The notes below the pieces were generated by a model, which worked only from the letters and a program-made list of their open reading frames with translations, was not told the DNA's origin and did no database searches. 64,000 nucleotides of DNA, taken from the NCBI GenBank assembly GCA_013115135.1, contig JABANP010000089.1:1-64000 (forward strand), in the 5' to 3' direction. This DNA comes from Perkinsus olseni. Taxonomy: Eukaryota > Perkinsozoa > Perkinsida > Perkinsidae. The position numbers and the translations under genes were made by a program. Of the stretch, positions 31,045 to 37,290 are shown one piece after another. Every line of letters begins with the position of its first letter. The first letter of the stretch is position 1.

Positions 31045-34000
31045 CTAGTCCTGGTCTGAGGATGCCTTCCTGAAGCCTGTCTTCTCGTAGTGGCCGTGCA
31101 AGACCTCCCGACGGATTCTCTCTAGTCGAACGACCGCGTCGTCCACAACGTCATTCGTCGCGCCGATATCCCTGATACCACACCTTCCCCAAATCCCATG
31201 GATCAGCACCTACCGCAGAGACCGGCCAATCTGCTGCATGAAGCAATCAAAGTGATAGTCCGTGATGGCCAGGACCGAATGCAGCTCCTTGAGATCTCGA
31301 CCCCGGTATCGAGACGGACCTGCCGAGCCACTACAACCAAGGACGCTCGTCATCGACGGCTCACCTCCGAGGACCATCGTGATGTAGGCGGACTGGGCCT
31401 TCTTGATACTCTTCAGCTTGGACCCCTCGAAGAAAGCGTTGATCCTCTTATCACGCTCCACGCACTCGTATCTACGGTTCATCATCACCCTTGGCCGATG
31501 AGATTCGGAAGTCTCACAGGCGAACGATGAATGCCTCGATGCCCTCCTGGCCGCCCAATTTCTCGAAGAGACGTTCTCTGCCTCCCTTCTCGCCCTCCTG
31601 CTTGGCGATCTCCATCCGTACCATGCAGCCCGTGGTGATGTCCGACCTTGTCCTGTTAACCACCTGCAGCGTTACCAATACTACAAGGGAAATTTGGAAG
31701 AAATTATTCCCGAGAATGAGAGCTGCCTATTTTTTTGTGCTGTTGTTCTAGTCTCCGCAAGCGTAGCTGGCAGCGAAGGCATCGTTCACACCACAACTTG
31801 AAAAAATTATCTTGTCTCGTTGAATTTACTGATCGGATATTCTCGACAAATTTGGTTGGCGGTGCCCACTGAGACGTCGAAGAGATAGCTCTAGTCTCAG
31901 CTGCGCGACCCTCCCATCTGCATGCCACTCAATAGAGTCCCGACCCGACACTTACCAGGAAGACATCGTCCAAGGTAATGCTGTCTACGCCAATGTCCTT
32001 AGCGGCCTCCACCAGGCTATCACAGAGAGCGTCAAAGTGGTAGTTGGTGATGTTCATGAAGTAATGGGCTGGTTTGAGCAGCTTCGCGTCGTACTGGACC
32101 GGACCCCCAAAGGCCCCGCTAAGATATTGATACCTGCCAACCACCAACTCACCATTCGAACTGCTCAATTCAGTCGGTACATCTTCATCCTGATTTGCTT
32201 TTGCTTTGCCTTCCCCTTCTCCAGAAAGTACCTCACCCTAGAGTCCTCCTTCGCCCTCTCGTACCTGACCCTACCAATACCAGCCGACGCAGGCAATGGG
32301 CGATCCCGACATATTCTCGACGAGGGCCTCTAAGGAAAGATCCCCTCCCAGCCGGTCCACCAGGCTCTTGTCATCCTTGCTTTGTATCACTAAAACAAGT
32401 CCCTTCTCATGTACCGCGATTTGGGCATTTTACTGGTATGAGCGTCATCCTCCTTGATACCGAGCACGCTCGGCCTGACCTCCTCCAGAGAGACGACAAC
32501 CTCGTCGATGAGTTCCGGGGAAATTCCTGCGCGCGAATGACGTGCATCGTGGAAGGGCATCCAGGCGCCCACCTGCCTCAACCATGGCCTTGTGGAAATT
32601 CGATATAAAAACATCAAAATGATAATCATTAATACCTAAATTTCCCCAAATCAGACAGCGGAGCGAAGCGCGTCATGTTTTTCAGTTTTCGGTATGACGT
32701 ACCCAAGTGCTCATGTACTTGGAACAGCTCTCTCCCTTCATACGTCTGCGGGCCTCCCAGAAGACCCACGACGTATTTTCCGATATTCTCTCGGACCCTC
32801 GCCAGATGAGGGATCCCGAAGAACGTCTTGATGCGCGGATCAGCAAGGGATAAGTCCATCACTTCACTGTACAGCTTCTCGATGCCATCAGTCTTGCCCA
32901 ACCTGCAGGCGAGCTACCTCGTCGAGGCTTCGTTAAATGCCAGTGAAGAGATCAGAGCTGGAACCGCCAAGACTCTAGCGAAGGCCCCCCTATCCGAACC
33001 GCCGTTAACGATGGCGTTACCCTATGAAAAGGTGGTCCTTGCCGTTCTCTATGCGCTGTCGGGCCGTCTCCATCCGAACCGTGCATCCCAGAGTAATGTC
33101 AGTACGCACTGGCTGCAACGTCTTGATCAACTCCCTGGCCAGCCCTGAGGGATAGGGAACTGCGGACCTCCTTGGCAGCCTAGTCCGCCACTCACGCCGA
33201 TCTACTCCCATATCCGTTACCAACACCCCAAGCATGATGCTGAGCATCCTATCAAACTGCCGATCAGCGATGTTCATGCCGTAGTGAGCTGGTCTTAGCT
33301 CCTTCACATCATATTGGGACGGCCCACCTGCAAGCAGCAGCACTTCGCACAAGAAACGTCACGCGCCACGAAATTCAACTTGCCTGTGAGGAGGCACACA
33401 TATTGTGTCATTCTCTCCCGTATAGTGGTAATCCGGGCCTTGTTCTTCTCGAGGAAGCTCCTCAGACTCGGGTCCTCCAGAGCCTTGTCGTACATCTTAC
33501 TTATGAACACCGCAATGGACTGCTCTCCACCCAGACGGTCGAACCTGACGGCCACCTCCCCTTCGAAGCTGCATTCGTATTTCCCGGAACGCACAGAGAC
33601 TTTTTCCTTGACGCCTCCTGAGTCGCTCGGGCGTCGTGCTTTCGGAGGTCGGGATTAACGACATTAGCCCGCTCTGTCTCTAGCAGCACCGCACCTAGAA
33701 AATCCACCGTGTGACACCGACGTATCTTAGGGTTTGACTCTTACACTCGTCAGTCGTGTCCGGATCCAAACCGCGCTTCAATAGAGCCTTCCGGCATAGC
33801 TCGAGGAAGGCATCAAAGTGGTAGTCAGCTATTTGTATCATAGCATGGATCCTCGGCAAGGGCCGCCCTACGTACTCGACCGGCGACCCCAACAGCTGGG
33901 CAATGTACTCCCCTGAAATCACCACCGTCGACCGTGCGGAACAACTCGCTGTGGAAGCCGGGAAAGAGTCTGCGTGTTCAACAGATTTTCACTGTCTACG

Positions 34001-37000: not shown

Positions 37001-37290
37001 ACCATCGCCATGACTGTATCTACTTGAACGTCGACCATACCTCCGCCATTCTGGCCCGGGGTCGTAGCAGCTACTAGTTGCTTTATGTGGCCCAATTTAC
37101 CTTGCAAAATTGACCAGAGGAACTTACGCATCCGAAAGACACGCTACCTGCTACTGCTGTTATGCTCGTCTTCACGTTTTGTATCTCATCCCGCGTTTTA
37201 CCGACTGTATTTAACAGCTCATCGACGTCTACTCCCCTCACTGCCATGGATTGTCCGGGGAAAGCTGATGGAGTCACAAGAAGGGAAACG
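31045..37290 (-). CDS. Poly-globin: eight tandem truncated-haemoglobin domains
   Basis: Reading the minus strand from 37290 down, an N-terminal helical extension (VDELLNTVGKTRDEIQNVKT) is followed by eight globin units, all separated by short introns. Each has a head (LYERVGGDLAIETAVDLMY; FGQLGGDDGIEAFIDDLY; LFEKLGGQEGIEAFI), a CD region (RVKLFFSG, RINAFFEG), a GGP-x-x-Y turn and an F helix with the proximal His: VHYDMNITDYHFDA, VHKDMGVDDFTFDC, FHFNMNITDFHFDA, IHAMIQIADYHFDA, AHYGMNIADRQFDR, VHEHLGINDYHFDV, AHYFMNITNYHFDA, LHSVLAITDYHFDC. A linker with RTDITKGCTVR joins most units. Approximate units: 36773-35937, 35724-35150, 35150-34440, 34369-33720, 33590-33020, 32905-32410, 32380-31610, 31600-31045. 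The stop is at 31045. The number of start exons and some E-helix exons are unresolved. A tandem array of separate genes is possible but no internal stop/start pairs were found between units. Confidence 0.8.
35858..35906. repeat. Near-perfect 49-bp palindrome in a poly-globin intron
   Basis: Two arms of about 23 nt (ATTCTTCTCGACGTTG... and its reverse complement ...CAACGTCGAGAAGAAT) flank a tiny loop with one mismatch. It lies in the ~205-nt intron between globin units 1 and 2, longer than most introns here. It would form a strong RNA hairpin. Confidence 0.9.

What the first reader, a model, noticed from the sequence alone, without database searches (positions are those of the whole stretch)
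31045..37290. Eight-domain poly-globin gene in a protist
Eight truncated-haemoglobin units lie in one continuous exon chain on the minus strand with no internal stop/start pair between units. All eight keep the F-helix proximal His (the H in V/A/F/I/L-H-x-x-x-x-I-x-D), and seven keep FF or FL at the CD corner. The units are joined by a recurring linker (R-x-D-I-T-x-G-C-T-V-R). Multidomain globins are known from some animals, but I know of no described protist truncated globin with this many domains. Units 2 (FTFD) and 5 (RQFD) vary where the others read Y/F-H-F-D, suggesting differing ligand chemistry.
Basis: partly seen in the sequence, partly recalled or inferred. Interest (0 to 1): 0.87.

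Follow-up and report, generated by a model that had tools for sequence, protein, structure and literature searches.

The report
Eight-haem globin chain in Perkinsus
A single gene in a mollusc-infecting single-celled parasite encodes a chain of eight small haemoglobin units, arranged as four alternating pairs; the same eight-unit design recurs in the free-living protist Oxyrrhis, so it is an old, conserved and apparently undescribed oxygen- or nitric-oxide-handling protein family.

Summary
On the minus strand, 37247-31045, a 31-exon gene encodes an N-terminal helical region plus eight group-1 truncated-haemoglobin (TrHb1) units. Pfam finds eight Bac_globin stretches; all eight units keep the proximal histidine. 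The window is Perkinsus olseni or near kin (787 of 813 aligned residues). The frame is broken once, in unit 1.

(2) The tree fits growth by doubling, 1-2-4-8, although the A half alone does not reject other orders. (3) Eight position-specific units recur in Perkinsus paralogues (eight loci in this genome), an Oxyrrhis marina transcript and unnamed environmental sequences. So the octamer predates the Perkinsus/Oxyrrhis split.

Tandem TrHbs are a known kind (Chlamydomonas THB5 has four), so I file this as a new variant. Best guess at function, inferred only: a soluble intracellular multi-haem O2-binding and NO-dioxygenating protein. No paper found in my capped searches describes it; one key review (Hade 2017) was not readable.

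The parts
31045..37247 (-). whole CDS of the octa-globin gene, 31 exons; frame broken once in unit 1
   Evidence: splicing by script and comparison with P0001/P0002
36774..37247 (-). N-terminal helical region of about 110 aa; no Pfam match over this part in the orthologue P0001; low-confidence helices in the AlphaFold model of P0001
   Evidence: tblastn with P0001, exons, Pfam, model
36042..36772 (-). unit 1 (type A); exon 36417-36361 carries the frame break
35970..36041 (-). A-to-B linker 1 (RRDITTGCTVR...)
35237..35969 (-). unit 2 (type B); B10/E7/E11 = Y/V/Q
34479..35179 (-). unit 3 (type A); H/Q/I
34362..34478 (-). A-to-B linker 2 (RTDITKGCTVR...), contains intron 34417-34370
33666..34361 (-). 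unit 4 (type B); Y/I/Q; aligns without gaps to HbN
33101..33599 (-). unit 5 (type A); Y/I/M
33035..33100 (-). A-to-B linker 3 (RTDITLGCTVR...)
32471..33034 (-). unit 6 (type B); M/V/I, without the HbN-type Tyr/Gln pocket
31643..32366 (-). unit 7 (type A); Y/I/M
31574..31642 (-). A-to-B linker 4 (RSDITTGCMVR...)
31108..31573 (-). unit 8 (type B); Y/I/Q

Best explanation
One gene encodes a soluble, probably cytosolic eight-haem protein: a helical N-terminus followed by four tandem AB pairs of group-1 truncated globin units. SHOWN by computation: eight units in one chain, proximal His in each, two alternating unit classes, units that group by position across Perkinsus and Oxyrrhis, and a predicted truncated-globin fold. 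INFERRED: each unit binds haem b. Most B units (TyrB10/GlnE11, as in mycobacterial HbN and Tetrahymena trHb) hold O2 tightly and convert NO to nitrate with an outside reductase. The A units (TyrB10, mostly non-polar E7 and E11, Met commonest at E11) bind O2 with different affinity and act as store, electron relay or partner. Chaining eight units with a helix before each B unit fixes the A:B ratio and raises local haem density. The array arose by doublings AB, ABAB, ABABABAB in or before the common ancestor of Perkinsus and Oxyrrhis.
Against: Nothing biochemical was tested. No fused reductase was found, so NO turnover would need a partner. Unit 6 here, and 10 of 19 U6 and 11 of 19 U8 rows in all, lack GlnE11. 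Oxyrrhis is not a parasite, so resistance to host NO cannot be the general reason. The window copy has a broken frame in unit 1. In the A half of the tree, alternatives to the doubling order are not rejected (p 0.09 and 0.12), and the tested groups were named after seeing the tree. Single positions are not each a clade in every tree (U2 and U5, U7; six of eight, where P0033 has long branches). pTM 0.67: the relative placement of the eight units is not known. Cytosolic location rests on inspection of N-termini, not on a predictor.
Confidence: 0.55

Rival explanations
1. O2 store or buffer: the chain is a concentrated intracellular O2-binding protein (like the poly-globins of animals), with NO chemistry incidental.
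For: Eight sites per chain, F8 His in every unit, eight octa-globin loci in one genome; molluscan Hbs are tied to hypoxic and fresh-water species (passage of PMC4503718).
Against: TyrB10/GlnE11 pockets usually release O2 too slowly for a store (established knowledge of HbN, recalled). No expression level is known here.
Confidence: 0.22
2. Haem reservoir, sensor or peroxidase-like redox protein: the units hold haem mainly to buffer it or to sense or detoxify oxidants.
For: Met at E11 in 46 of 73 odd units could alter ligation or redox behaviour; N-terminal helical region of unknown role.
Against: TyrB10 in 107 of 149 residues and a gap-free match of unit 4 to O2-binding group-1 globins.
Confidence: 0.15
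3. Not one gene: eight neighbouring single-unit genes, each starting at the Met of the linker.
For: The A-to-B linkers U1/U2, U5/U6 and U7/U8 of the window contain a Met; U3/U4 has one only further on.
Against: Linker residues before that Met are conserved as protein. The frame runs through all joints of the 26-exon chain, four of them inside one exon. P0001, P0007, P0017 and P0019 are single ORFs with 8 units. C717 has two units in one open stretch.
Confidence: 0.02
4. This copy is a decaying pseudogene in this isolate, while the family is functional elsewhere.
For: One frame break in exon 36417-36361; the published P. olseni model P0002 starts only after that point.
Against: The other 30 exons are open, with GT-AG or GC-AG introns. 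P0002 is identical at 787 of 813 aligned residues. The break lies in an adenine-rich run, where assemblies often err.
Confidence: 0.12

Closest known systems
Single-domain group-1 truncated haemoglobins of ciliates (Tetrahymena pyriformis 3aq5-3aq9; Paramecium caudatum 1dlw)
   Same: Tetrahymena is the best sequence match for a type-A unit (U7) and a type-B unit (U4) of the window and for P0001; the two are among the best fold matches; HisF8, TyrB10 and, in most B units, GlnE11
   Different: Those are one unit; here eight fused units in two classes with linker helices and an N-terminal extension. E7 is mostly non-polar here, Gln in Tetrahymena
Mycobacterial HbN (1idr)
   Same: Unit 4 (type B) aligns to it without gaps; units 2, 4 and 8 share TyrB10/GlnE11 (HbN residues from passages of PMC3820574)
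   Different: Single unit; A units have a two-residue insertion before helix E and no GlnE11
Multidomain TrHbs, e.g. Chlamydomonas THB5 with four consecutive 2/2Hb domains (PMC7082302 passage); Hade et al. 2017, IUBMB Life (title seen only)
   Same: Several TrHb units on one chain in a protist
   Different: Four units in THB5 against eight. Alternating A/B classes and position identity kept across genera are shown here; whether THB5 or the proteins in Hade et al. have them was not tested
Animal poly-globins: Artemia (nine domains), Carditidae/Astartidae bivalves (14-28) (PMC4503718 passages)
   Same: Tandem globin units on one chain
   Different: Those two are extracellular animal haemoglobins (3-on-3 type, recalled); here truncated-globin units with no evident signal peptide
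Guillardia theta chimeric globins (PMC4101818 abstract and passages)
   Same: Protist, several globin domains on one chain
   Different: 3/3 fold with a putative cytochrome b5 N-terminus; six domains in two proteins

Membership tests
Group-1 truncated haemoglobin (TrHb1/HbN), unit level | Matches the Bac_globin family | tested here: met
   8 stretches in the window chain (first version) and in P0001
Group-1 truncated haemoglobin (TrHb1/HbN), unit level | Closest solved relatives belong to group 1 rather than 2 or 3 | tested here: met
   Top rows are group 1 by sequence for P0001, U7 and U4 and by fold (mostly unit 4); group 2 rows score lower. Other units were not searched alone
Group-1 truncated haemoglobin (TrHb1/HbN), unit level | Proximal His F8 | tested here: met
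   8 of 8 in the window; 150 of 150 residues in 19 proteins, 2 gaps
Group-1 truncated haemoglobin (TrHb1/HbN), unit level | TyrB10 with Gln at E7 and/or E11 | tested here: inconclusive
   Window units 2, 4, 8 have TyrB10 and GlnE11; 5 and 7 have TyrB10 and MetE11; 3 and 6 have neither TyrB10 nor GlnE11 (3 has Gln at E7); unit 1 has TyrB10, its helix E lies in the broken exon
Group-1 truncated haemoglobin (TrHb1/HbN), unit level | Binds haem b and O2 | not testable with these tools
   Needs purified protein
Multidomain truncated haemoglobins | Two or more TrHb units on one polypeptide | tested here: met
   Continuous frame and exon-spanned joints; single ORFs in relatives
HbN-type NO dioxygenase | NO consumption by oxy-haem with a reductase | not testable with these tools
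   Only pocket residues were compared
Flavohaemoglobin | Fused FAD/NAD(P)-binding reductase domain | tested here: not met
   No such Pfam match in the window chain or in six homologues

The most novel reading that the evidence does not exclude
The octa-globin is a fixed intramolecular machine of four AB globin heterodimers with two alternating haem chemistries, built by three successive doublings before Perkinsus and Oxyrrhis diverged and held at eight units since. A and B units would work as partners (for example one holding O2 or passing electrons, the other oxidising NO), a division of labour inside one globin chain that, as far as I recall, is not known from truncated globins.
Probability: 0.25. 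Interest if true: 0.82.

Novelty: new variant of a known kind. Interest (0 to 1): 0.62.

Why it matters
It shows that protists evolved large poly-globins of the truncated type, apart from those of animals, and kept the domain number and the identity of each position over a deep split. If the two pocket classes prove to be chemically distinct, it is a natural system for studying division of labour between haem sites in one chain. It also means that Perkinsus, a genus of mollusc parasites, has about 64 globin domains in eight loci of one genome (by chaining exon pieces; intactness of the seven other loci was not checked), which current annotation calls hypothetical.

Tried and rejected
Rejected: that the linker is a general spacer (0 of 57 at B-to-A joints); that units 2 and 5 are the odd ones by pocket; eleven-, ten- or fifteen-piece proteins (P0003, P0004, P0005, P0018), which carry a second N-terminal region or repeat the unit order inside and look like fused neighbouring gene models (sequences).

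Led nowhere: the third protein search with divergent members returned only 3 hits and missed known members. All three protein searches scored only about 8,000 candidates, so absence from core dinoflagellates or other alveolates is not shown. NCBIfam: no match for P0001 and P0007. Rfam: none in the window at gathering score. Papers: no Perkinsus or Oxyrrhis globin paper in the listings; some listings were capped (15 of 161, 25 of 36 and 30 of 501 papers shown). Two Perkinsus papers hold none of the globin or NO terms looked for (PMC2868825; PMC6642578). Hade et al. 2017 is not held and a 2013 survey of microbial eukaryote globins is recalled only, so a prior listing of these proteins there cannot be excluded. 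A codon-position count between two near-identical paralogues (C1, C456) gave 11, 7, 18 differences of 1014 sites, too few to weigh.

Weak points in my counts: the 19 proteins were chosen for having 8 HMM hits and are related, so the counts are not independent. P0040 is one of them, and its hits 5 to 7 are partial, so its unit labels 5-7 are unsure. The linker pattern was written after seeing the sequences. The 16 proteins include the window with a partial unit 1, and that call warned of few columns and of long P0033 branches. The 8 proteins were picked from the 19 and leave the window out. The E7 and E11 columns of A units rest on an alignment with a two-residue insertion.

Full report
WHAT THE WINDOW IS. 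The window is contig C878 of a 61.5 Mb, 968-contig genome. Its nearest annotated proteins are Perkinsus: FOZ61_000997 of P. olseni (P0002) and FOL47_008915 of P. chesapeaki (P0001), both hypothetical proteins. Over the 813 ungapped aligned residues of P0002 the spliced window chain is identical at 787, 96.8%. It is therefore P. olseni or very near kin. Perkinsozoa and Oxyrrhis both lie in Alveolata.

GENE MODEL. An HMM from three hand-read units finds exon pieces between 36.3 and 31.0 kb on the minus strand; the hits outside that stretch have E 2.4 or more. Splicing 26 exons (36315 to 31045) gives 1020 residues in one frame, ending in TAG; 24 introns are GT-AG and one (33383-33328) is GC-AG. 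My first version mis-placed one splice in the U4/U5 linker; P0001 and P0002 showed the right one. Comparison with P0001 adds exons 37247-37148, 37100-36974, 36925-36818, 36773-36690 and 36417-36361. In the last of these the frame entering from upstream and the frame leaving downstream do not agree: the gene is broken once there, in helix E of unit 1, in an adenine-rich run. Relatives have it intact. I left it as it is.

EIGHT UNITS, ONE CHAIN. Pfam counts eight Bac_globin stretches (E 1e-102, on the first version), and eight in each of P0001, P0007, P0017 and P0010; P0040 and P0033, more divergent, give five and four at a threshold of 0.001. With a unit HMM, 15 of 37 homologues score as exactly eight, as does the window. 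Of the other 22, P0021 and P0030 have nine pieces because one unit is split. P0003, P0004, P0005 and P0018 have 10 to 15 and look like fused neighbouring models. The remaining 16 have one to seven and are partial, shorter or chimeric models. Of the four proteins scanned, P0038 and P0039 score eight, P0040 gives eight hits with three partial, and P0030 nine. At four of seven joints in the window one uninterrupted exon carries both the end of one unit's helix H and the start of the next unit's helix A: U1/U2, U2/U3, U5/U6, U7/U8. In the paralogue on C717 one 309-aa open stretch holds units 2 and 3, and a 199-aa one holds most of unit 5 and the start of unit 6. P0007, P0017 and P0019 are transcript-derived ORFs (names) with eight units each. 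P0007 is Oxyrrhis marina by its near-identity, over about the first 440 residues, to UniRef entry P0031, which is named so; the species of P0017 and P0019 is not shown. A row of separate genes is thus very unlikely.

THE ALTERNATION. Odd and even units are two classes. A 128-unit quick tree splits 64:64 by parity with SH-aLRT 100 and needs 10 label changes (few columns, long P0033 branches). A 64-unit careful tree from eight proteins gives 100/100 on a branch of 1.73 changes per column, and the eight position labels need 7 changes, the minimum possible (shuffled mean 45.3). Units therefore group by position, so that for instance unit 3 of Perkinsus groups with unit 3 of Oxyrrhis (100/99), not with its neighbours; U2 and U5 are not each one clade in that tree. 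The eight positions thus existed before those lineages split. Within A, U1+U5 stands against U3+U7 (99/97); within B, U2+U6 against U4+U8 (100/99). This is the pattern of a four-unit block copied whole. The two alternatives in B are rejected (p 0.0195 and 0.0197); in A they are not (p 0.093 and 0.117) (groups named). Root position inside each class was not inferred.

LINKERS. In the AlphaFold model of P0001 (23 aligned sequences, mean pLDDT 82.3, pTM 0.67) each A-to-B linker forms one helix of 20-22 residues (222-243, 497-516, 766-787, 1036-1057), while the B-to-A linkers have only short helices. A helix placed just before each B unit recalls the pre-A motif of mycobacterial HbN, which is reported to matter for NO scavenging (recalled; not read here). 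That parallel is inference.

POCKETS. Columns were mapped on the Tetrahymena trHb aligned (Tyr25 B10, Gln46 E7, Gln50 E11, His73 F8; helix labels recalled, though the mutants named and the title of Igarashi 2011 fit them). In 19 proteins F8 is His in 150 of 150 residues (2 gaps). B10 is Tyr in 107 of 149. E7 is nearly always non-polar. E11 is Gln in 47 of 76 even units and in 0 of 73 odd units, where Met is commonest, 46 of 73. By position the Gln count is U2 14, U4 16, U6 9 and U8 8 of 19 each. Window units (B10/E7/E11): U2 Y/V/Q, U3 H/Q/I, U4 Y/I/Q, U5 Y/I/M, U6 M/V/I, U7 Y/I/M, U8 Y/I/Q. Unit 1 has Tyr at B10 and, in the downstream frame of the broken exon, Ile and Met by my own reading.

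FAMILY SIZE IN THIS GENOME. Ten regions were fetched. By chaining HMM pieces, seven have exactly eight units (C1, C179, C201, C717, C801, and two neighbours on C945). C456 has three and lies near a contig end, C113 is a single-unit globin, and C457 is a fragment. With the window this makes eight octa-globin loci. Exons with low scores could have been missed, and the frames of the other seven were not checked.

HOW IT MOST LIKELY WORKS. Inferred: haem in each unit, tight O2 binding and NO dioxygenation in the Tyr/Gln B units with an outside electron donor, and a supporting O2-binding or redox role for the A units. TyrB10 and GlnE11 are named as the triggers of ligand gating in HbN (passages of PMC3820574), and the B10-E7-E11 network of Tetrahymena trHb is tied to O2 stability and NO detoxification (title of Igarashi 2011 in reference lists). 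Host NO is a plausible substrate in Perkinsus: a study on NO in oyster defence against P. marinus is cited in PMC3724850 (title seen in its reference list). Since Oxyrrhis is free-living, the general role must be wider.

WHAT IS KNOWN. Animals have nine-domain (Artemia) and 14-28-domain (bivalve) haemoglobins (passages of PMC4503718). [quoted passage not shown] Guillardia has six globin domains of the 3/3 type in two chimeric proteins (abstract and passages of PMC4101818). Symbiodinium Hb-1 and Hb-2 are reported with a conserved globin domain, Hb-2 being 198-247 residues long (passages of PMC3631397). Hade et al. 2017 treat tandem TrHbs; I saw only the title. I found no description of the eight-unit family in the listings of the open library, some of them capped; that library lacks most subscription journals.

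VERDICT. Real, well supported, and richer than described: a conserved (AB)4 octa-globin family. New variant of a known kind, the multidomain truncated globins. Function is inferred only.

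Noticed in passing
window 36417-36361 (-): Single frame break in the helix-E exon of unit 1, in an adenine-rich run; intact copies exist in relatives.
   Followed up: partly
window 33383-33328 (-): One intron of the gene uses GC-AG instead of GT-AG.
   Followed up: yes
window about 35930-35855, inside intron 35947-35714: By eye, a near-perfect inverted repeat (hairpin) lies in the intron after the start of unit 2's helix A; perhaps a small mobile element.
   Followed up: no
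window 30896 downwards (-): The next gene on the same strand starts about 150 bases after the stop and begins with a protein kinase domain (PF00069, E 6e-6, below its curated cut-off).
   Followed up: partly
L051 (C1) and L052 (C456): Two octa-globin loci are 94% identical over 3 kb, the second partial and near a contig end: perhaps two haplotypes or a recent copy.
   Followed up: partly
L047 (C179), between units 4 and 5: A gap of about 3 kb without globin exons splits this octa-globin gene in the middle, perhaps an insertion.
   Followed up: no
P0031 (Oxyrrhis marina, 625 aa): A four-unit ABAB form that joins the front of unit 3 to the back of unit 7: an assembly collapse between repeats, or a real short isoform.
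   Followed up: partly
P0003, P0004, P0005, P0018, P0006, P0037: Public Perkinsus models that look mis-joined: neighbouring octa-globins fused (first four), a PF04178 (Got1/SFT2-like, name recalled) protein fused in front (P0006), a piece of unit 8 inside a PF00443/PF01699 model (P0037).
   Followed up: partly
L054 (C113) about 1568-1940 (-): The genome also has a single-unit truncated globin, PF01152 at E 3e-11, 25% identical to a unit of P0007.
   Followed up: partly
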